In this document: piece by piece, positions 1,443 to 55,855 of the stretch
Layout: each line of letters starts with the position of its first letter
How positions within the stretch are numbered: position 1 is the first letter of the stretch
Source of the DNA: Ailanthus altissimus
Taxonomy: Eukaryota; Streptophyta; Magnoliopsida; Sapindales; Simaroubaceae
Reading direction: 5' to 3'
DNA: 64,000 bases
Assembly: GCA_946807835.1 (NCBI GenBank)
Contig: OX327683.1
Coordinates: 4,035,001-4,099,000 of the forward strand
Notes under the pieces: generated by a model
Databases searched by the model: none
What the model saw: only the letters and a program-made list of their open reading frames with translations
Told to the model about the DNA's origin: nothing
Position numbers and translations under genes: made by a program

Positions 1443-1458
1443 GTTGTAGTTCACATAT

Positions 1459-2241
1459 TGATGCGATAATTCTATATCATAAATTAAGTGCAAGTATACA
1501 CTATCGTATGCAAGTAATAAAGAGACTAATTAGTCGGATGTCGAACCCACAGGGATAATTTCTTCTTTTTAACCAATTACTAAAATTATATCTTTCTAAT
1601 AATTATTCAGAAAAATAAAAATCTAAGAATGAATATAAGAAATATAAAAGCAAAAATACAATGCAATGAGATTTAAAGATAGCAATGTAGAGAAAACCTA
1701 GGATTAATATTATCCCTCAATATGTTTCTAATGATTAATCCTCTAATATTTAACTCACTTAGTCTTTATTATTGATCAAGACACTAATGTATTCACAAGC
1801 CTCTTTCAAGGTTATGCAAGTATATCTTAGTTTACCAAATACCTATATTTCTATGGTACTTGTAATAAATTAAGATTTACTTGCATGACCTTGGAAGAGG
1901 CTTGTGAATACATTAGTGTCTTGATCAATAATAAAGACTAAGTGAGTTAAATATTAGAGGATTAATCATTAGAAACATATTGAGGGATAATATTAATCCT
2001 AGGTTTTCTCTACATTGCTATCTTTAAATCTCATTGCATTGTATTTTTGCTTTTATATTTCTTATATTCATTCTTAGATTTTTATTTTTCTGAATAATTA
2101 TTAGAAAGATATAATTTTAGTAATTAGTTAAAAAGAAGAAATTATCCCTGTGGGTTCGACATCCGACTAATTAGTCTCTTTATTACTTGCATACGATAGT
2201 GTATACTTGCACTTAATTTATGATATAGAATTATCGCATCA
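1459..2241. repeat. Left terminal palindrome (LTR 3' part, inverted and direct)
   Basis: Arms 1459-1834 and 1866-2241 are each 376 bp and are reverse complements, with about five mismatches and no length differences. Four of the mismatches lie in the innermost 40 bp. The spacer is 31 bp. The right arm ends ...ATCGCATCA directly before the primer-binding site, so it is the downstream part of a genuine LTR. The left arm is its inverted copy. Confidence 0.9.
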
Positions 2242-2247
2242 AGTTTT

Positions 2248-2265
2248 TGGCGCCGTTGCCGGGGA
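2248..2265 (+). other. Athila-type primer-binding site
   Basis: TGGCGCCGTTGCCGGGGA begins 6 bp after the LTR end at 2241. It is the well-known Athila/Tat primer-binding site and fixes the plus-strand orientation of the internal region. Confidence 0.85.
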
Positions 2266-2380
2266 TAATTATCTACTTTTTCACCAATATTAATACCAAT
2301 CTTTCTCGTTTTTACTTTAGAATTTTTATTTTTATTTTTATTTTTCTTAATTTAGTTTTACTTTCTTTGTTACGAGGTAC

Positions 2381-4960
2381 ATGCGAAGATCGAAGAGTGA
2401 GGACTTGATTGCTTTTGATTCAGAAATTGAAAGAACTTTAAGAAGAATTAGAAGAGAGCAAAATCAAGTCAACACCATGGAAGACCAAGTACCAATTGCA
2501 CCCGACAATGAAGCAAGACCACTAAGGGAGTATGCTGTTCCCTTAGTCAATGGAATCCATTCAAGCATTCAAAGACCAACTGTTCAAGCTAACAACTTTG
2601 AGATCAAGCCAAGCACGATTCAAATGCTCAAGGATTCGGTACAATTTAGTGGACTACCCAATGACGATCCAAACATGCACATTATCAACTTCTTGGAGAT
2701 ATGTGACACATTTAAATACAATGGGGTGTCCGATGATGCAATTCGACTAAGGTTGTTTCCCTTTTCCTCGAGAGACAAAGCAAAAAGCTGGCTGTTATCA
2801 CTTCCATCCGGATCTATAGCTACATGGGATGATCTTGCACAAAAGTTCCTCGCCAAATATTTTCCACCTGCTAAAACTGCCAAGATGAGGAACGACATCA
2901 CATCATTCCTACAACTAGATGGAGAATCTCTTTATGAGGCATGGGAGAGATACAAAGATATGCAAAGAAAATGTCCTCATCATGGAGTTCCGAAGTAGTT
3001 ACTTGTACAAACATTCTACAATGGATTAGCCGGTCAATTCAGAACGATAGTAGATGCTGCAGCTGGAGGAGCACTCATGAACAAATCCACTAATGAAGCT
3101 TATGATCTACTAGATGAGATGGCGTCCAATGCCTATCAATGGCCCACCGAAAGGTCAACCACAAGAAAGATCGCTGGATTACATGAAGTAGACACTTTGA
3201 CTACATTATCTGCCCAAGTCAACCTCTTGACCAAACAATTAAGCAACTTGGGAGTTAATGCTATCAAGAGTCAACCCATCACCTGCGATTTCTGTGGAGG
3301 AAATCATGCTAATGGACAATGCATGGAGACTGCTCAATATGTAGGGGACTTCAACCGCAACAATCCTAATTCTAATTTTTATAATCCTGGATGGAGAAAT
3401 CACCCCAACTTCTCATGGAGCAGCAATAATCAAGGACAGCATTCTAAAGCTCCTCCTGGCTTTCAACCACAAGTACAGCAAGAGAAGAAACCAGACATTG
3501 AAGACATGCTCTTACAATTTATGAAGAAAACAGATGCACTCTTCCAAAGTCAAGCAGCTTCACTTAGAGCCTTAGAGAATCAAGTAGGACAACTTGCTAC
3601 AGCAATAAACAATCGACCTCAAGGAACTCTACCAAGCAACACCGAAGTCAATCCAAAAGGAAGCGTAGAACAGTGCCAAGCCATCTCCCTAAGAAGTGGT
3701 AAAGTCTTACATGATAACACTCCTCAACCACAACTTTCGGAAATGATAGAGAAGGAAAAAGAACCAGTGGTCCAGCAAGATGACGTGCAACCATATAGAC
3801 CACCTATACCATTTCCTCAGAGATTACAGCAGCTCAGAAACCAAGAGAAGAGTGATGAGACACAGAAAAGCATAGAATCTGGTATTCAAGTACAAGAACA
3901 GAAAAGTGAAAATGCAGCAGAAGATACCAGTAGCAATCCGCAGAAGCAATCTACGTAGTCATTCACTCCACCACCTCCATTTCCTCAGAGGCTGCAAAAG
4001 AAGAAACTAGATAAGCAATTTTTTAAATTTCTTGATATTTTTAAGAAATTACATATTAATCTTCCTTTTGCAGATGCACTGGAGCAAATGCCAAGCTATG
4101 TGAGATTTATGAAGGACATCCTATCAAAAAAGAGAAAAATAGATGACTTCGAGACTGTGGCCTTGACGGAAGAGTGTAGCGCCATCCTCCTAAAGAAACT
4201 ACCTCTAAAGCTCAAAGATCCTGGGAGTTTCACCATACCATGCTCAATTGGGAATTATGATTTTGGGAAGGCACTTTGTGATCTGGGAGCTAGCATCAAT
4301 CTTATGCCACTGTCCGTGTATAAAAAGTTGGGACTGAAAGAAGCCAAACCAACAAATATCACACTTCAGTTAGCAGATCGTTCTCTCACCTATCCTAAGG
4401 GATTAATTGAAGATGTGTTGGTTAAGGTCGATAAATTCATCTTCCCTGCCGATTTCATTGTTTTGGATATGGAAGAAGACAAAGAGATCCCAATCATCCT
4501 TGGAAGACCCTTCCTAGCCACTGGAAGAACAATCATTGATGTGCAAAAAGAGGAGTTGACCATAAGGGTACAAGAGGACACAGTCACTTTTAAGGTCTTC
4601 AAGGAGATCAAATTACCAACTGAAAATGAAGACTGTTTCTGCATTAATGTGATGCACCCAAGTGTCAAGCAAATTAAAGAGATGGAGACATTGGATCCTC
4701 ACATCCGAAAAAGAGCATTAAAGCATAGGAAGGCAAGAGAGAAGAAGAAAAAGCAGCATCACGACGAAGCAAGCAAAGAGAAAGAAAAGGAAGAACCATC
4801 TCCCCGGTCTAAGATTAAAGTCTTTCCGGAGAGACATAATGAGAATGGAGCAAAAGATACTACCCAAGGTTTAATTGCAAAAATATGGAAGCCGAAAAAG
4901 AAGAAAGCCAGCAAGATCACTTACTCAAATGCTTCCATCAGCATCTTCGACCCACCATAA
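2381..4960 (+). pseudogene. Athila-like gag-protease polyprotein with two amber codons
   Basis: One reading frame of 860 codons from ATG 2381 to a TAA at 4958-4960, broken only by TAG at 2996-2998 and TAG at 3956-3958. Residues about 70-205 carry the retrotransposon gag domain (SVQFSGLPNDDPNMHIINFL; W and Y positions in DDLAQKFLAKYFPP). A Cys/His segment CDFCGGNHANGQC follows near 3284-3325, then a Q/P-rich linker. The aspartic protease lies near 4260-4540, with the active-site motif DLGAS at about 4280 and the flap-distal ILGRPFLATG at about 4497. The C-terminus is Lys/Glu-rich. The first TAG stands where relatives usually have Trp, so TGG to TAG is likely. No pol domains follow: the next 1.8 kb is noncoding. 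Such an element would depend on an autonomous partner for reverse transcription. Confidence 0.85.
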
Positions 4961-6729
4961 AAGAAAAGGAAGCCCCGTCAAGCCAATGACGTTAAATCAA
5001 GCGCTACTTGGGAGGCAACCCAAGAAAAGTATTAATATTATTATTATCATTTTTTTATGTTTTCAGCACAAAAAAAAAAAAAAAAAAACCAAGAATTTCA
5101 GCGCTCCAGCGGCATAACATGGCGCGGCAACGACAGAAAAATCGAGACACCACCGCCCCCGCGGTACACGCAACATCGCGCCAGCACAAATTCCAGTAAC
5201 TGTGCAGAAATCAGCCTTCAGCGCTGCAGCGATAGACGATTACCGCGGCAGCGCCAGAACATCGCCCCAGCGATGGAGAGTCAGCGTGGCAGCGAAACAT
5301 TGACCAGGGAAGTCTCTTACTTTCACTTCTTTATTTTTTTTTGACATTGGGGACAATGTCTAAATTAAGTTTGGGGGTGGGAAACACTTTCTTGTGTTCA
5401 TTTTTCTGCATGATTTGGGTGGTCATTCTTGTGGGTTAAATTTTTTTTTTAGTTACTTAGTTTTTTTTTAGTTAATTAATTTTTATTAGGTTTTGATAAG
5501 ATGATCATTAGTCTATGATAAGAAAAAGAATACATGGTTGAATTTATTTTTACACATCCATAGAGAATGATAGATACTTGAGACAATTTTGATTATTCAA
5601 GTTTAGGAACAAGTTCGACCTTATTCATAATCACCAGTTTTTTTGAGCACTTTATAAGCATGAATAGTTATAACTATTACTTAGAGATACTTATGTTTTA
5701 GAGAGTACACCACAGTATCGAAGACCGACACTCTAGAACTTGTCTTTAATTACTACTTGAGGCGAAATTCTAGGAAACACATGAATAGGGAAATGACATT
5801 AGGCCATTTTTGGACCGATTAAGCCTTTCTAACCTACCTTTTATTGTATATTTATCTCTAGTACCCTATTTTGAGCCTAATGACCCATTCTTTGGTTTAA
5901 CCACATTACAAGCCCAAGACTTAAAGTTTATTTATCTAGAAAATTACCCGTAACACCATAAACCTTGCATTTACTTAGAAATACTCTTGAAAAGAAAAAA
6001 GTTGTGGTGATATGAGAAAAATAAGTTTGGGTGGTATTTGTCAATCTAAGTTTGGGGGTATTCAAAAAAAAAAAAAAAAAAGTAAAATAAAATACCCCCA
6101 GCTTAAGAAAAAGAAGAAATTCTTTGAAAAAAAAAAGGTTGAAAAGAAGGATGGGAACACAATAAGTTTGGGGGAAGAGATAATACAAGGAAAAAAAGAT
6201 AAAGAGGTTTCTAGGTAAAATCTAAGTGTTCATGGTGTGAATTGAACTTCATATATTTATCCTTTTATCCCACCTTGACCTTAGCCTTACATTACAAGCT
6301 AAGTAAAGTCCTAAATAGATCCCTAGACATGTGATTTTCTACATTAGTGGAGAGTGGTAATAAAGACAAGCTTATGGAAGTGTCATTATACAAATAAAAT
6401 GCCAAGACATCATCTTTTCTGTACAAACTAAAGTATAAAGTAAATAAAAGTATGGTTTAGCTATTTACTTGCTGCTTGCACACACACACACAGTGATTGT
6501 CTATAAGGAAGAATAAGGGACTAAACAAAGATAATTTAGAATTGTTAATAGCTATTTATCGATCTTAAGGATTTGTATCATTTCGTCAGCCTTTGAGACA
6601 ATGATTTTGATCATCTTACTAGTATTAGTATATTTTGTTTTGTTAAATGAGTCAAGTATAACCCTTTGTTTCTCTCTTAGTTTTATTTTATTGCTTGAGG
6701 ACAAACAAGTATTTAAGTTTGGGGGAATT
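4961..6729 (+). other. 3' noncoding region of the Athila-like element, with repeated polypurine-type boxes
   Basis: No coding potential seen. It starts with the sequence typical of this region (acgttaaatcaagcg...gggaggcaaccca, 4987-5025). A GC-rich island at 5099-5290 is rich in CAGCGC motifs, and GACATTGGGGACAATG follows at 5343. AAGTTTGGGGG occurs at 5367, 6048, 6164 and 6715, with a variant at 6023. The last copy directly abuts the LTR start at 6730 and is the likely functional polypurine tract. Poly-A runs at 5070-5088 and 6064-6080 are low complexity. Confidence 0.75.
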
Positions 6730-7056
6730 TGCTAAAGGCAAATTTGTCATATATTTTCTCATGTTTTTATTATTGATATTTTATGATTTTATGAGAATAG
6801 ATGGCTATTTATGTGCTTTATTGTTATTTATAGGGACTTGAACGAAATTTAAAGAAAGAACGCAAAAGGAGCGAAAACAGGGACTAAAATGCAAAGTTTT
6901 AGTCCCTGTTTTCGCTCCTTTTGCGTTCTTTCTTTAAATTTCGTTCAAGTCCCTATAAATAACAATAAAGCACATAAATAGCCATCTATTCTCATAAAAT
7001 CATAAAATATCAATAATAAAAACATGAGAAAATATATGACAAATTTGCCCTTATCA
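6730..7056. repeat. Right terminal palindrome (LTR 5' part, direct and inverted)
   Basis: Arms 6730-6889 and 6897-7056 are each 160 bp, match at about 158/160 and are separated by a 7-nt spacer (TGCAAAG). The left arm starts TGCTAAAGGCAAATTTG immediately after the polypurine tract, so it is the true upstream end of the LTR. The right arm is its inverted copy and ends at the CATAT target duplication. A TATA-like TATTTATAG lies near 6827-6835. Confidence 0.9.
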
Positions 7057-7061
7057 CATAT

Positions 7062-26893: not shown

Positions 26894-28412
26894 TGTAATA
26901 CACATGTCGATGGATTTCAAGTATTATGCTTGAGTGGCAAAAGAAGAATAAAATAATTTTATTTAAAGGATGAGTGGACATTTTTCTAATGGAAACTAAC
27001 AAGTGGCTCGTTGTTTATAAGACGCGGTGGCATTTGATGAATAAAATAACATATTACAGTTGTTTGATAAATGGATTTCTGGAAAAGGCACTAACACGTG
27101 GATATAGTGGATTATGAGAGAAAAATAAATAAATAAAGTGATGGCTCTCTTTCATTGGCCAAGTGAGCGGTGGCTGTAGTATATAAAGAAGAAATGATTT
27201 GTTTCATGGTGGTTAAGCCAAGAAAAGAATTGAAACAAAAAAGAAAAGGAAAAGATGGAAAGCGAGAGGAAAAAACAATAGAGAAAGAACAGGGAGAAAT
27301 ATAAAAGAGAAATTACAGAAAATAAATTTAGAGAGTTAAATTTATATTTAGTGATTTGTTTCATGCTGATAAATCTCAAATTTTTGATTCAATTTAGAAT
27401 TAATATACTTTTGTGAGAGGATAATTATATATAATTATATTTTTTTAATATAATAATTTATGATTTGATTATATGTTGTCAAATTTATTTTATTCATACT
27501 TTATTTTATACAGTTAAATATTTATGTCATTTAGTATATCTAAATTTACTTTTAAAATTTATTATAGTATAGTTTATGATTACGTTCAGTATATAAATAT
27601 TTATTTTAGAATAATTATACTATAGTAGTAGTTATTGAATCACCAAATGCGTACTCTCTCATTTAGTGTAGTTGCTCTACGCATGAATTAGACTAGTTTA
27701 TTTGCTTTGCTCGACCGATGCAGCATTTCGCTGGGTGATACAATTTTAGATCCTCCGCTCTACCTTTGCGCGAGTTACTCTGTCAGGTGAAATCACGTTT
27801 TCCCCGAGTACAAATTTGGTGTAGTTTTAGTATGTATATAGTATATGTTCACAAAGCTATGTTATATATATTCAGCTTTAGAACATATTTCATAATGATT
27901 TACACTTTTATATTTTTAGATTTTCAGTATTATGTTGTGATTTTCAACTTTGGCATATATTTTATGACAGTTCATATTTTCAGTATAAATTTATTTATTG
28001 CTTAGTATACAGCTTCGTGATGATTCTATATTTTAGATTTATACTTGTATATTACATATAGTATTATTTATTATTACATTATTATAGAAGCTATTATTTA
28101 AAGTATATATAAATTATATAATATTTTTTAACTATGTTAAGCCATAAGTTCATCAATTTTCTTTTTTTTTTTTTACTTTTTTAAGGTTGTCGCATAAATT
28201 GGTGCAGTGTGATATATCTTCACATTATAAGGCTGGCTCATGACACGTATAGCTACATGAGTTGTTATGTTCATATATTTGTGTACATGTATACACTTTT
28301 ATTGAGGCACGTAACCTCATTGTATTATATGCAATGAATAAGAGTATGTTAGTCTCATGTTATTGCAGGATCCGCTTCAATTCTTGAGGAGGACTCGTGT
28401 TGGGTCCTGTCA
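26894..28412 (+). mobile_element. Ty3/gypsy (chromovirus-type) solo LTR
   Basis: 1,519 bp flanked by a perfect CATTC duplication (26889-26893 and 28413-28417). Its start TGTAATACACATG and end GGTCCTGTCA match the start (TGTGATACACG) and end (GATCCTGTTA) of the chromovirus 3' LTR at 37373-38814, read in the opposite orientation. They share a GCGGTGGC block, a purine-rich leader at 27235-27310, and the GGATCCGC(C/T)TCAATTCT block near the end. No internal sequence remains. Confidence 0.85.
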
Positions 28413-34520: not shown

Positions 34521-36876
34521 CCAACTTCCCCTTCTTAAAATGGATAAATGTGGGGCAACCAAAACTTCTGAAGTGCTCATACTTTGGTAGAATCCTAGAC
34601 CATTTTTCTTCTAGTGTCTTGAATTTAATTGTTGAGGAGGGACTTCTGTTAATTAAATAAGATATAGTTACTATAGTTTCTCCTCAAAATACCTTGGACA
34701 TTTTTGCATTGGTAAGCATGTATCTAACCCTTTCAAGTAGGGTCTTATTCATTCTCTTAGCTACGTCATTCTATTATGGTGTTGATCTCACCGTTCTATG
34801 CATTCCAATCTCATGCTTGGAACAAAACCCCATCAAACTCTCTATTGTAAAACTCAACGTCATTGTCAATCCGTAGTCTTTTCACCTTTTTGCTAGTGTG
34901 ATTCTCAACAAAAGCCTTCCAAGTCTTGAATGTATCAAATACTTGATCCTTACTCTTCCACACATAAACCTACAGCTTCCTTGAAAGTCATCAATCAAAC
35001 TAAGAAAATACATAGTACCTCCATGAGTAACTGTTTAAGCTAGTCCCTAAATATCTAAGTATATGTAGTTAATAGTTGATGTCTATTTTAATGACCTAGT
35101 GCAAGTGTACTTTTTTGTATCAAGTAATATAGGACTTAAGTCCAGATTATCGATCCCACAGAGACTATTGTTTCTATTTTCTTCAATTGAATACTAAAAT
35201 TACTCTACTTTACCTTTATCTAGACTAGCTTCAAGGATAGAGTTTAACTAACTAAATTATTACTATCAAATTGAACCTAATTAAAATATTGCAAATACTT
35301 AAAGATAGAATTCACTAAATTGATAAGTAATCTAGGGTATCGACGCATCCCCTAGTAGTTCACTGACCCCTTTAACCCCTTATTTATTTTCCTTTTTATC
35401 AATTGATTGGCTAGACACTGATTTCATCATAAACTTCTGTCGACAGTCGAATGATAATATCACACCCTAACAATTACCTATATGTCTATGGTAATTCGAA
35501 TAAGATGCAACTCATTAAGATTAAGTCTAATCAAACCATACATACCACCTCGGTATATGTCTATCCTAGATGGAACTCATAGATGTTACCCTATGATCAT
35601 GTATCAATCTACCATAGGCTAAACACATGATTCCTTTCGTCAAAGTTATCATGATTCCTAAACAATCAAAATAGTGATCAAGTATAATGAAACCATTAAG
35701 CATGGATAGATTGAATCAATTAAGGGACAAAAGTTCATAACTAAGAGATTAAAAGAATCAATTACATACTAGGTTCAATAACGTCTAACCCTTGATCAAG
35801 AGAAATTAGCTCATGTTCAAAACAAGAATATCAAAGCAAAAGTATGAAAATATAATGAACGAAATCATCTCTTAAAAGTAAGAAATAAAACAAAACAAGT
35901 GATCCCTTGAGTTGTTCTTCTTCCTCTTGTCTTGATTGCCCAAGAGTTGATTCCCCAATCTTCAATCTTCAATAACTTCACTTTGATTTCTTGGCTTGAA
36001 TGTGTGTGTGTTGCTTGTGTTATTCTCCTTGATAAAAGTCTCTCTTTTTGCCTCAAAAGAGTATTTTTGTTGTTATAAGAAACACTAGGCACGAGCAGCC
36101 CCCATTTTCTCAAAGAAAGGAGGAGTATTTAACTCTCTCGCATGGGCGCCGCGGCGCTGGGTCTCAGCGCCGTGGCGGTGGACACGAGTACAGGTATTCG
36201 CAAATCTTCGACGAGTGTCGCGGTGCTCACACGCTGTTCTGGGCGCCGCTTCCCCCAGCCACCACCTGCTACTGCTGCGCTACTTTCGTAATTTGAGCGT
36301 AACTTCTTCGTTTGATGTCCGATTTGCCTCCCGTTTGTTCCTATGCGTCACATTTGCCATCCTGCATCTGTTTATGATCAGAAAACACAATTAAATAGTC
36401 AAATACTTATGATTTGGAACAAAATATGAAAGTTAAGTACAAATCCTACTAACGCTTTTATGCCCTTATCAATAGTCCCCTTAGTTTTGTGCTCGTCGAT
36501 ACTAAACCTCACTATGTACTTTTTAGAGCATACAATGTTAAAAAAAACTCCAATGAAACTTATCCTTACCAAACACTTTTTGACTAAATAACTTTTTTAA
36601 GTTTCTCTCGCCTATGTGTACTAGTTTAAGATGCTACAGCTTAGATTGCATATTCTTATCATCTACAAAGAATAATGAAGAACTACTTACAACTTTTCCC
36701 TTAAGTACATAAATAATTTTGCGCTTCTCTCTTTTCATTACCATTATGGAACGCTTTAATACTCTCAAAACCCCTCTATTAATCCTGATAGAACATCAAT
36801 TTTGGTCTAAAGTACCTAGTGAGATCAAGTTTCTCTTAAGGTTAAGAACATACCTAATTTCTATCAACTTTCTCAC
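34521..36876 (-). pseudogene. Copia integrase (split by a solo LTR)
   Basis: Degenerate minus-strand integrase fills 36876-36477 and 35071-34521. Recognisable parts include the zinc-type HLGH region around 36640-36600 and the C-terminal segment near 34560-34500 that leads into the linker. The solo LTR 35077-36471 with its ATAGT duplication accounts for the gap. Stops are frequent. Confidence 0.55.
35077..36471 (-). mobile_element. Gypsy-type solo LTR (TGATGCG family)
   Basis: 1,395 bp flanked by a perfect ATAGT duplication (35072-35076 and 36472-36476). On the plus strand it starts TGATGTCTATTTTAATGACC...GTGCAAGTGTAC and ends ATGCCCTTATCA. These are the same end sequences as the outer ends of the Athila-like element at 1459-7056, so it supplies the reference layout of an unrearranged LTR of this family. 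A GC palindrome GGCGCCGCGGCGCT lies at 36145-36158. Confidence 0.85.
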
Positions 36877-37372: not shown

Positions 37373-38814
37373 TAACAGGATCTGATCCGAGCCCTCCTTG
37401 AGAATTGAGGCGGATCCTATGATGACATGGGATTGACATACTCTTTACTCATTTCATTCGACACAGTGAGGCTACGTGCCTCAACAAAATATACACATGT
37501 GCTCCAATATATATAAAGATATAGAAATACACAGACTGAGATACTCATGCAACTATGTGTGTCGTAGGCCAATCTCAAAATGTGAAAACGGTATCAAACT
37601 GCACGAATTTATGTGACAACCTGAGAAAAATAAGTAAAAGGGTAAGCTTTGTGGCTTAGTGAGTTGATATAATTAGAAAATATTATATACTTTATATGTA
37701 TTGTACACATATAAATCTGTAAAATACAATAATCATGAAATTGTATACTAAGTAGTCAATAAACTTGTACTGAAAGTATGAGCTGTCATAAAATCTGTGC
37801 TAAAACTAAAATCATAACATAATACTGGAGATCTGAAAATCTAAAAATGTAAACTATCATGAAATCTATTATAGAGATAAATATATGTAACATAGCTCTG
37901 GAAAATATACCGTTTATACTATATACATACTGGAAACCACTCAAAACTTGTACTTGGAAAAAACTAGTTTAAGCTAGTGAAGTAACTTACTTACAGGCAG
38001 AGTGGGAGATCTGAACTGGTTTAACTTGATAGAATGCTGCATTGCTCAGGTAGAGCAAACTAAACTGGTCTAGTGCATATGCAGAGTAACTACACTAAAG
38101 TAGAGGGTACGTGTATGGTGATTCAAGAACTTCTACTATATAATATCATAGAAGCATAATTATCCTAAAATAATTATTTTTGTACTGAATATAATCATAA
38201 GCTATACTATAATAGATTCTAAAAATATTTATAAATATACTAAATAGCATAAATATTTATTTGTCTAAAGTAAATCATAACTAAATCTGATAACGTATAA
38301 TTAAATCATAAACTACTGTATTAAAAATGTATAAAATATATATAGCTATCCGCTCACAAAAGTGTGCTAATCTTGAGCTGGGCCTGGATTCTAAGATCTA
38401 CTTGTTATCAGTACACCTCTTATATCATAGGGTATAAAAATATATCATTAGTACTAATACGTAGTACAAAAAATGAAATACAAATATTCTAACATCATAA
38501 AATTGTTACCCGTGAAATCACTAGGTGTAAATCTAAATACCCAAACTTGTTTCTTGTATTTTCCTTTTATTTCTTCTCTTTCTTTTTTCCCTCTCGACTA
38601 TTTTCTTCTTCTTCTAACTCTTTTCTCTATTCTTTCCTTTTCTCTTTTCTGTTTCGGCTTTTGCTTCTATTTCAATTTTGTTTCATCATAAATAAAGCAA
38701 AAAAAAATTAAAATAGATATATATATGTGTTGACAACGCCACCGCCTCACATTTATTTATACTATCTTTTTTTTTGCCACTAAACCTCACATAAAGGTAA
38801 ATACGTGTATCACA
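37373..38814 (-). repeat. Chromovirus 3' LTR
   Basis: 1,442 bp, TG...TA on the minus strand (the terminal CA has mutated). The last 277 bp (38538-38814) are repeated at 41378-41677. It is homologous to the solo LTR 26894-28412. Confidence 0.8.
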
Positions 38815-45790: not shown

Positions 45791-46717
45791 TGTTAAAAAT
45801 TGGTGATTCAACAATTTTGTATAAATAAGAATTGAAATGAATATCATGATAAGAGTCATTATGAAATCAAGTACTCATTTGGTGTATAAGAGAGGAGTAA
45901 AATGGAAAGCCAAAAAGAATTGATACTGTTCATGCGGTGATACTGTTTACGGGGTACTATTTAACGGGCACTGTTTACGTGGTTACTATTTACGTGGCAA
46001 CTTTAGGGTATTTCCTGTTTTATCTCAATTAACTTCTTTAAGTGGGATTAAGACTCCTACAAGTAATGACTCTTATTCCAAATAAGTTTAGAGTTTTTAA
46101 GGGTGTTTTATTCACTATATAAGCCCTTCTAAACACAAGAGAAAAAAACAAGCATTTAAGGTTTCAAGATGTAACCATAAGAGAGAGTAGAGGAGTTAGG
46201 TAGGCACTAAGTGCGTAGTGCACTAGGGTGTAACATTTGGGAGTATTTTCTTTTAGTTCTTAAGTAAACAAAAGAAACACTATAGATTATTTTGACTTAG
46301 ATGCTTGGGTTATTCTTGTATTCCTTGTAAAAATCTCTTATGAGGAGATATTAAAAGGTCTTAGGGAGACATAATGATTAAGGGTAGATACTTAGAAGTC
46401 TCTATGGGAGATACTAAGGGGTCTTGTAGGATCATTGATGATGTAAGAAGAAACTTAGTGATCTATTTCAATAATAAGAAGTTGGATCATGGATCCTCTA
46501 TAGACGTAGGTAATTTTAGGCAGAACCACGTATATCTTATGTCTTATTGATTGGTTTATTTTCTTTATCTTTATTGGTGTGTTGATCTTATATGTTCTTT
46601 TTTATGGTGTGAGTTATAGTTTTTCGTTGCGCATAGAATAGAAAGAGTGTCAAGGTTCTGGCTTAGTTAATGCCATAGAGGTGTCAAATTGAAGAGCATG
46701 ACTTGATATCCGCTACA
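45791..46717 (+). repeat. 5' LTR of the non-autonomous copia element
   Basis: Starts TGTTAAAAATTGGTGATTC and ends GATATCCGCTACA. It contains five TACTGTTTACG-type repeats (45926-46000), about 135-210 bp from the start, and a TATA-like CTATATAAGCC at 46114. Confidence 0.85.
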
Positions 46718-47877: not shown

Positions 47878-48808
47878 TGTTGAAAATTAGTGATTCAACA
47901 ATTTTGTATGGGCAAGAATTTAGATGAATACTAAGAGGAGAGTCATTACAAAGTCAAGTATACATTGATTGTACAAGAGAGGACCAAAACGGAAAGCCAA
48001 AAAGAATAGGTACTATTCATGCTGCGATGGGTACTATTCAACGTGAGGTACTGTTCATGATGGATACTGTTCATGCAGCAACTTTAGGGTATTTCCTGTT
48101 TTGGCTCAATTGACTTCTTTAAGTGAGATTAGGACTCTTACAAGTAATTGCTCTTATTCCAAATAGATTTAGAGTTTCTAAGAGTATTATATTCGCTATA
48201 TAAACCCTTCTAAACACAAGAAAAAGACAAGCATCTAAGGTTTCAAGATGTAACTAAAAGAGAGAGTAGAGGAGCTAGGTAGGCACTAAGTGCGTGGTGC
48301 ACTAAGGTGTAACCTTTATGGGTATTTTCTTCTTTAGGTTCTTTGAGTGAATAAAAGAGAAACACTATAGATCATTTTGGCTTAGATGCTCTGGCTATTC
48401 TTGTATTTCTTGTAAAAATCTCTTATAAGGGATACTAAGAGGTCTTAGGGAGTGATGGTGATCAAAGGTAGATACTTAGAGGTCTTGTGAGATCATTGAC
48501 GATGTAAGAAGATACTTAGTGATCTATTTCAGTAATAAGAAGCTGGATCATGGATCCTCCGTGGACGTAGGCAATTTTGAGCCGTACCACGTATATTTTG
48601 TGTCTTGTTAATTGGTTTGTTATCTTTATCTTTATTGGTATGTTGATATTATATATTCTTTCATATAGTGTGTTGATCTTATATGTTCCTTCTTATGGTG
48701 TGAGTTATGATTTTTTGTTGCGCATAGAATAAGAAGGGGATTAAAGCTGTGGCTTAGTTAATATCATAGGGGTGTCAAACCGAAGAGCATGGCATGATGT
48801 CCGCTAAA
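47878..48808 (+). repeat. 3' LTR of the non-autonomous copia element
   Basis: Partner of 45791-46717 at about 85-90% identity by eye. Its TACTGTTCATG array lies at 48010-48085. Confidence 0.85.
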
Positions 48809-54658: not shown

Positions 54659-55855
54659 TGAGTACAAGCACCAACTCTCCTTCTTCTTTATTTCTCGATT
54701 CAATACTAAAGAACCAAAACTAGACATTCAAGCCTTCCATCAATGCAGCAACTTTATCTTAATCAAACTTAATCACTCAAATTTTCTCCTATGGTATTGT
54801 TAAGTGCTTCCATTGATAAAAATCTTAGAATTCCACATCATATTGCAAGCACCAAAAAGCCATCAATAGATATTAAAAATTCTGATGGAACCAAAGTCAC
54901 AAATCCAGAGTTCATCCTTTGGGAAAGCAATGATGGTCTCTTAATTTCTTGGCTGTTAAGAACAATGATAAAGGGAATTTTGAGCACTATCATTGGAGTT
55001 GAAATTGTCTATTATCTCTGGAAATCTATTGAAGATCAATTGCTGCCAATAACTAAGGATAAGGAAGTGCATCTCATAGATGGATTGCTAACTCTGAAAC
55101 GAGGCTCAATGACTCTTGAGGAGTATTTAAAAAAATTGAAACACTTGTACGATTGCTTGATGCGATATTTTTATATTTTAAAATTAAGTACAAGTATACA
55201 TTATCGTAACAAGTAATAAACAGACTTATCATTAAACATATAAAAAACCTAATATTTTCATTAAAATAAGTAATTAATCAAGTTTAGGGAGTAAAAATAA
55301 TAGATATAATTTACGCTTATCATTACTTTGCGGCTATAAACAAACCTATAGATGATTTGGATAAGGTTTTTAACTTGGCTAAAGGGCTAGGAGTGAAATA
55401 TCAAGACTTTTTGCCTAGCTATGCTATCAAAGCCACCATACTCTACCTTCAAACAATTTGTCATAAATCTTGAAAACCATGAACAAACTCTAGCTAGCAT
55501 AGAAGAAGTGAGCAAGAACTTCATTGATCATGCTCAAGCCTTTTATAGTCAACGTGGTAGAGGCTGAGGAAACCATGGTGCATATTTCAACTCTTGAGGT
55601 CGTGGATTTGCTCCTACTAGAAGAGGTAACAACAATAACACAAATGGCACACTCAGCCCTAATTACAAAGGAAACTCAACACAATAAGGAAAAAATCAAC
55701 AAACACCTCAAAAGGAGAAACAAAATATAATTTACCAAATTTTTCACAAAAGGAATCATACTGCCGATGAATGTCGACATAGGTATGAAAATGCCCTACA
55801 AGTTGAAGAACTACTTCAAGCATTGGCAGTCATGAACTTTGATGAAGAAATTGAC
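54659..55855 (+). pseudogene. Copia gag
   Basis: Starts at ATG 54658-54660 (MSTSTNSPSSLF). The open stretch 54791-55157 has the gag domain (FILWESNDGLLISWLLRTM, LYDCL), then an LTR insertion, then PIDDLDKVFNLAKGLG from 55345. A knuckle near 55735-55775 reads YQIFHKRNHTADECRHRYE. The two leading Cys of the CCHC motif are replaced by Tyr and Phe. Stops and frameshifts are present. Confidence 0.8.
55158..55322 (-). mobile_element. 165-bp mini-LTR of the TGATGCG family
   Basis: Begins TGATGCGATATTTTTATATT...AAGTACAAGTATACATTATCG and ends ACGCTTATCA, the same end sequences as the Athila-like element and solo LTR 35077-36471, but only 165 bp long. Flanking 5-mers TTGCT (55153-55157) and TTACT (55323-55327) match 4/5. 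The gag sense resumes on both sides. Confidence 0.75.

What the first reader, a model, noticed from the sequence alone, without database searches (positions are those of the whole stretch)
1459..7056. Retrotransposon whose core looks inverted between the midpoints of its own LTRs
Seen: the left terminus is a 376-bp-arm palindrome of the LTR's downstream part, and the right is a 160-bp-arm palindrome of its upstream part. A perfect CATAT duplication lies just outside. Writing the LTR as L-R, the layout R'-R-core-L-L' is exactly what inverting everything between equivalent mid-LTR points gives from a minus-strand insertion. The outer ends match the unrearranged minus-strand solo LTR at 35077-36471. 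Inference: either a post-insertion inversion with both breaks at the same LTR site, or integration of a product already rearranged by self-integration or template switching. LTRs are direct repeats, so simple homologous recombination between them cannot invert the core. Arms of 98-99% identity suggest a recent event.
Basis: partly seen in the sequence, partly recalled or inferred. Interest (0 to 1): 0.88.

Follow-up and report, generated by a model that had tools for sequence, protein, structure and literature searches.

The report
Jumping gene with two mirror-image ends
In this copy of a jumping gene (likely from a plant), each end is a mirror-image repeat of only part of its usual end sequence and the middle of both ends is missing; it was likely made when the enzyme that copies its RNA into DNA switched strands at both ends before the copy was inserted.

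Summary
In detail: 1459-7056 reads R'-R-core-L-L', flanked by CATAT duplications. The source genome (939 Mb, unnamed, likely a plant) could be searched. There, 26 of 28 fetched family LTRs have L and R in the usual same-orientation order, about 1.4-1.5 kb long, and a sibling element is an ordinary LTR-core-LTR with a colinear core. Two points in the finding need correction. The breaks are not one mid-LTR site: about 802 bp (LTR 172-973 of 1392) is missing from both ends. The solo LTR at 35077-36471 is not of this family. Both turns sit on short native inverted repeats: ten pairs plus one G.T at the left, AAAA/TTTT at the right. Four independent random breaks give ends this close in 0.33% of trials. 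The arms share a base seen in 0 of 26 other LTRs, so they likely come from one parent. Neither junction was found elsewhere among the candidates scored. Best explanation (0.5): both strong-stop DNAs switched strands at these repeats during reverse transcription, and normal strand displacement then gave an integrable DNA with palindromic ends. Main rival (0.35): a template-switch inversion after insertion. The sequence alone does not decide, and searches for the un-rearranged site did not complete.

The parts
1454..1458 (.). left target-site duplication CATAT
1459..1877 (-). outer R': LTR positions 1392 down to 974, ending at the left turn
   Evidence: native similarity of other copies stops at 1877-1879
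1824..1876 (-). native imperfect hairpin at the left turn: 1824-1834 pairs with 1866-1876 (ten Watson-Crick pairs, one G.T); 1877 T faces 1823 T
   Evidence: native sequence in other copies
1878..2241 (+). inner R: LTR positions 1029-1392
2242..6729 (+). core, from PBS-like to PPT-like site (both labels recalled); colinear with the sibling element L061 (94.6%)
2381..4960 (+). gag-protease frame, broken by TAG at 2996 and 3956; gag PF03732, aspartic protease PF13650
6730..6900 (+). inner L: LTR positions 1-171
6886..6900 (+). native AAAATGCAAAGTTTT at the right turn (AAAA/TTTT, 7-nt loop)
6901..7056 (-). outer L': LTR positions 156 down to 1
7057..7061 (.). right target-site duplication CATAT

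Best explanation
This is an LTR retrotransposon copy with palindromic ends, likely built during reverse transcription, when its two strong-stop DNAs would have switched to the opposite strand at short inverted repeats in the LTR, and then likely integrated as one molecule. Every step that follows is inferred. (1) tRNA-primed minus-strand DNA copied the LTR from its 3' end through a native hairpin (LTR 1392 to 974), folded back and was extended as R, then PBS copy, then core by the programmed transfer to PBS'. (2) PPT-primed plus-strand DNA copied about the first 156 bases of the LTR and switched at AAAA/TTTT onto a plus-sense template, such as the second packaged RNA, and was extended as L', PPT' and core'. 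(3) The strands 5'-R'-R-core and 5'-L-L'-core' paired over the core, and the strand-displacement synthesis that normally completes the LTRs copied each 5' end, giving blunt R'-R-core-L-L' with exact LTR termini. (4) Integrase supplied in trans inserted it with a 5-bp TSD. Shown directly: layout, TSD, the missing 802 bp, the place and pairing of both turns, and the ordinary LTRs of the relatives read.
For: One perfect TSD and exact LTR termini at both ends. Both LTR middles are lost and both turns lie on native inverted repeats. In the sibling LTR only 64 of 54590 random point pairs 8-60 apart carry a 6-bp stem and 185 of 29760 pairs 7-30 apart a 4-bp stem. Four independent uniform breaks give ends this close in 0.33% of trials. 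The base at the left turn (T at 1877 facing T) is the next native LTR base, as if a polymerase without proofreading extended a mismatched end. The left turn lies downstream of the TATA box (LTR 409 in the sibling), so it falls inside the inferred minus strong-stop. R' and R share a base seen in 0 of 26 other LTRs and differ at 3 sites against 7 or more to any of those LTRs. Self-priming of minus strong-stop DNA at a stem-loop is reported for HIV-1 (passages of PMC4668388; PMC3098202).
Against: Two rare switches in one cycle are needed. No half product (one palindromic end only) was seen, though only 28 other copies were read. As free DNA the left hairpin folds no better than shuffles (z -0.36 and -0.90), and the right AAAA/TTTT stem is not the predicted fold of the truncated piece. 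The right turn fits a switch in trans, not a simple fold-back, if the outer arm came first. A template-switch inversion after insertion gives the same letters. HIV-1 self-priming products are described as aberrant or abortive in the passages read, not as integrated ones.
Confidence: 0.5

Rival explanations
1. Post-integration inversion by template switching: an ordinary minus-strand insertion (R'-M'-L'-core'-R'-M'-L') was repaired or replicated with switches at the same inverted repeats, out of LTR1, backwards through LTR2, core and LTR1, and into LTR2, losing both middles. A proofreading-free repair polymerase such as Pol theta could do it.
For: Outer ends and TSD are those of a normal minus-strand insertion. 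Turns on short inverted repeats and an extended mismatch also suit such a polymerase. Snap-back and templated insertion terms appear in Pol theta papers (search listing only).
Against: A local fold-back in LTR1 would copy R back into the left flank; to reach the core it must jump to the equivalent site of the other LTR, and again on the far side, so about four switches are needed. No un-rearranged allele is known, but the flank searches did not complete.
Confidence: 0.35
2. Nested insertion: a plus-strand element landed inside a minus-strand solo LTR, and both inverted junctions later lost their centres.
For: It would give the same order of parts, and the fetched stretch L062 shows that two family LTRs can lie head to head nearby.
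Against: R' and R share a base absent from 26 other LTRs and are closer to each other (3 sites) than to any of those LTRs (7 or more), so two unrelated insertions are unlikely; two separate centre deletions would both have to stop at inverted repeats.
Confidence: 0.06
3. Assembly artefact.
For: No reads could be examined; several contig lengths are round numbers, which suggests scaffolding.
Against: No N in the window. A fold-back read would run on into reversed flank rather than stop at an LTR end with a TSD. The arms carry different private bases.
Confidence: 0.05
4. Independent double-strand breaks in both LTRs and end joining of the flipped core.
For: It gives the layout and loses LTR middles.
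Against: Ends as close as these in 0.33% of trials, and stems at both turns are rare among random pairs.
Confidence: 0.04

Closest known systems
Template-switching complex LTR retrotransposons of Triticeae (Sabot and Schulman 2007, PMC1950507; abstract and passages read)
   Same: A rearranged element with one TSD and near-identical outer repeats, explained by abnormal template switching in reverse transcription.
   Different: Those are head-to-tail fusions with a third LTR in direct order; the word stem 'invert' does not occur in that paper's text.
Self-priming of minus strong-stop DNA in HIV-1 (passages of PMC4668388, and PMC3098202)
   Same: A strong-stop DNA folds back at a stem-loop and copies itself, as proposed for the left end.
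   Different: In the passages read it is an aberrant by-product that nucleocapsid suppresses, not an integrated form; here both strong-stops would be involved.
DIRS-1 elements (passages of PMC5633606)
   Same: Terminal repeats in inverted orientation around a core.
   Different: Inverted LTRs are the normal form there, with a tyrosine recombinase and an internal complementary region; the family here has direct LTRs and 5-bp TSDs.
Twin priming of LINE-1 (recalled, no call)
   Same: Inversion born during reverse transcription.
   Different: Target-primed, one inverted 5' part, no LTRs.

Membership tests
LTR retrotransposon, non-autonomous (Ty3/gypsy Tat/Athila-like is a recalled label) | direct LTRs in normal members | tested here: met
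   26 of 28 fetched loci have L upstream of R in the same orientation; in L020 only the last 41 of 163 bases of L match; L017 and L029 gave no L match. Sibling L061 is LTR-core-LTR. Not met by this copy itself.
LTR retrotransposon, non-autonomous (Ty3/gypsy Tat/Athila-like is a recalled label) | 5-bp TSD at the element ends | tested here: met
   CATAT on both sides; the sibling has ATAAT on both sides.
LTR retrotransposon, non-autonomous (Ty3/gypsy Tat/Athila-like is a recalled label) | gag and protease, reverse transcriptase missing | tested here: met
   PF03732 and PF13650 in two of three pieces scanned, no family in the third; other open frames of 70 aa or more are at most 95 aa and were not scanned. 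The sibling has one frame of 150 aa or more, 859 aa.
LTR retrotransposon, non-autonomous (Ty3/gypsy Tat/Athila-like is a recalled label) | lineage by reverse-transcriptase phylogeny | not testable with these tools
   no reverse transcriptase in the element
Product of strong-stop strand switching | turns at inverted repeats, arms ending at LTR termini, one TSD | tested here: met
Product of strong-stop strand switching | left turn inside the minus strong-stop (downstream of the transcription start) | tested here: inconclusive
   turn at LTR 974, TATA box at 409 of the sibling LTR; the start site itself is inferred
Product of strong-stop strand switching | independent half products in the family | tested here: inconclusive
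   none in 28 other loci read and palindromes in 4 of 62 held loci, all this locus; thousands of copies were not read
Post-integration inversion | un-rearranged allele at the same site | not tested
   both flank searches stayed busy
DIRS-type retrotransposon | inverted LTRs in normal members | tested here: not met

The most novel reading that the evidence does not exclude
Reverse transcription of LTR elements has a third integrable outcome: when both strong-stop DNAs switch strands at inverted repeats, the ordinary finishing reaction turns them into a linear DNA with palindromic ends that integrase accepts, flipping LTR parts and deleting the LTR middle in one cycle.
Probability: 0.45. Interest if true: 0.72.

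Novelty: new variant of a known kind. Interest (0 to 1): 0.5.

Why it matters
If made during reverse transcription, this is a genomic fossil of an intermediate that the passages read here describe only as an aberrant by-product in HIV-1, and it shows that such strands can be finished and integrated. It would also be a one-cycle source of large palindromes, which are known to be fragile and to give hairpin RNA (recalled). Annotation tools that require direct LTRs could miss such copies. If it arose after insertion, it is an unusually clean inversion between direct repeats guided by short inverted repeats. Either way it was seen once, in one assembly.

Tried and rejected
Rejected: 35077-36471 as a family member (no blastn match); an exact inversion at one mid-LTR point (802 bp missing); DIRS-type inverted LTRs; two unrelated insertions. 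A first palindrome scan of the held loci used an 80-nt loop limit and missed this element's own left palindrome; repeated with 400 nt it finds palindromes in 4 of 62 loci, all four this locus. L062 looked like another head-to-head case but is two complete, separate LTRs. On the sibling LTR the left stem came out as 0-1 bp, because the sibling reads TAAGGT where this element reads TAAGAT; on the element's own letters the stem is ten pairs plus a G.T. The TAAGAT form is in 4 of 26 other LTRs. The random-pair rates were measured on the sibling LTR. Ten literature searches listed no paper whose title or abstract opening describes an integrated LTR element with these ends; one search was about Pol theta. 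Most subscription papers are not held, so this does not show that it is unpublished.

Full report
What is there. The element at 1459-7056 reads, on the + strand, R'-R-core-L-L', where L is the start and R the end of its LTR. The two palindromes are 377 nt (99%) and 163 nt (98%) per arm in the repeat finder, spans that include one and three bases beyond the LTR ends. CATAT lies directly outside both ends. The core is in + orientation, from a PBS-like site after R to a PPT-like site before L (both labels recalled; sequence), with gag (PF03732) and aspartic protease (PF13650) domains in two of the three pieces scanned. No reverse transcriptase was recognised; frames of 95 aa or less were not scanned. 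The gag-protease frame has TAG stops at 2996 and 3956. That the genome is a plant's is inferred from its size and the element type; no call names it.

The family is ordinary. The window lies in contig C1 of a 939-Mb, 37-contig genome. A search with the R arm scored 40 of 3471 candidate places and listed 41 matches. Thirty loci were fetched, two of them this element. Of the other 28, 26 have an L match upstream of R in the same orientation (in L020 only the last 41 bases of L), with LTRs of roughly 1373-1491 bp, some starts being extrapolated; L017 and L029 gave no L match. The sibling L061 was read except for the first part of its 5' LTR: LTR-core-LTR, core colinear at 94.6%, one 859-aa frame, LTRs differing at 1 of 1258 aligned bases, and ATAAT on both sides. 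So in the copies read the LTRs are not palindromic, and the sibling likewise has only the gag-protease frame.

What was lost and where it turns. On the 1392-bp 3' LTR of L061, outer R' covers 974-1392, inner R 1029-1392, inner L 1-171 and outer L' 1-156; 172-973 is missing from both ends. At the left, the outer arm runs in native sequence through an imperfect hairpin (1824-1834 with 1866-1876: ten Watson-Crick pairs and one G.T), adds the next native base, T (1877), which faces a T, and then turns. At the right, inner L runs to AAAATGCAAAGTTTT and turns on AAAA/TTTT. In the sibling LTR, 64 of 54590 random point pairs 8-60 apart have a 6-bp stem and 185 of 29760 pairs 7-30 apart a 4-bp stem; the sibling itself lacks the left stem because it reads TAAGGT. 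Four independent uniform breaks give ends this close in 0.33% of trials. As free DNA the left hairpin folds no better than shuffles, and the right stem is not the predicted fold of the truncated piece, so the structures are weak by energy.

One parent, recent. Outer R' and inner R share a T that 0 of 26 other LTRs has, and rare letters at other columns; L and L' share a letter found in 4 of 26. R' and R differ at 3 sites in the compared columns, against 7 or more to any of those LTRs. Outside the turns, the arms differ at 5 of 520 positions (3 in R, 2 in L, counted over 1878-2241 and the first 156 bases of L). With recalled plant rates of 0.7-1.3e-8 per site per year that is roughly 0.4-0.7 million years.

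Seen once. A search with the right junction scored 23 of 23 candidates; 46 matches, and only this locus covers the whole query. A search with the left junction scored 40 of 1972 candidates; 80 matches, and only this locus covers all 151 bases, the others stopping at base 98-100 or covering the reverse part. The tool skips very common words, so these are good but not complete negatives. A palindrome scan of all 62 held loci finds 4, all this locus.

Mechanism. The ends are exact LTR termini, both turns lie on inverted repeats, both LTR middles are lost, and there is one TSD. Strand switching by the two strong-stop DNAs explains this with few special steps, because their 5' ends are set by the tRNA and PPT primers near the two LTR termini. 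Strand one becomes 5'-R'-R-core and strand two 5'-L-L'-core'; the strand displacement that normally completes LTRs then yields blunt R'-R-core-L-L'. The left turn fits a fold-back in cis, made from the outer arm inwards, by a polymerase that extends a mismatch. The TATA box at LTR 409 of the sibling would place that turn inside the minus strong-stop. The right turn, by its loop orientation, fits a switch in trans onto a plus-sense template if the outer arm came first. Self-priming of minus strong-stop DNA at a stem-loop is reported for HIV-1 (passages). All these steps are inferred.

Against it. Two rare events in one cycle are needed; the right stem is four A.T pairs; no half product was seen, though only 28 other copies were read. 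A template-switch inversion after insertion gives the same letters and cannot be excluded. Flank searches that might have shown an allelic or duplicated site did not complete (listed in Tried and rejected).

Compared with what is known. One TSD plus near-identical outer LTRs was the criterion for template-switching complexes in Triticeae (PMC1950507; abstract and passages), but those are fusions in direct order. DIRS-1 has inverted LTRs and a tyrosine recombinase (passages of PMC5633606); this family has direct LTRs. I therefore file the copy as a member of an ordinary non-autonomous LTR family carrying a new variant of switch rearrangement.

Noticed in passing
35077-36471: Minus-strand solo-LTR-like unit with TSD ATAGT on both sides; no blastn similarity to the element in the finding, only like termini.
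   Followed up: partly
55156-55229: A stretch 85% like the last 74 bases of this family's LTR, probably the end of a related LTR.
   Followed up: no
2381-4960: The gag-protease frame of this copy has two TAG stops, while the sibling L061 has one open frame of 859 aa.
   Followed up: partly
45791-46715 and 47878-48806: Direct repeat pair, 79% identical, not identified.
   Followed up: no
27399-28410 and 37375-38371: Inverted repeat pair about 1 kb long, 70% identical, not identified.
   Followed up: no
L005-L008 (contigs C20 and C17): Four LTRs of two full-length elements on two contigs have no differences in the compared R columns, pointing to a recent burst or a copied segment.
   Followed up: no
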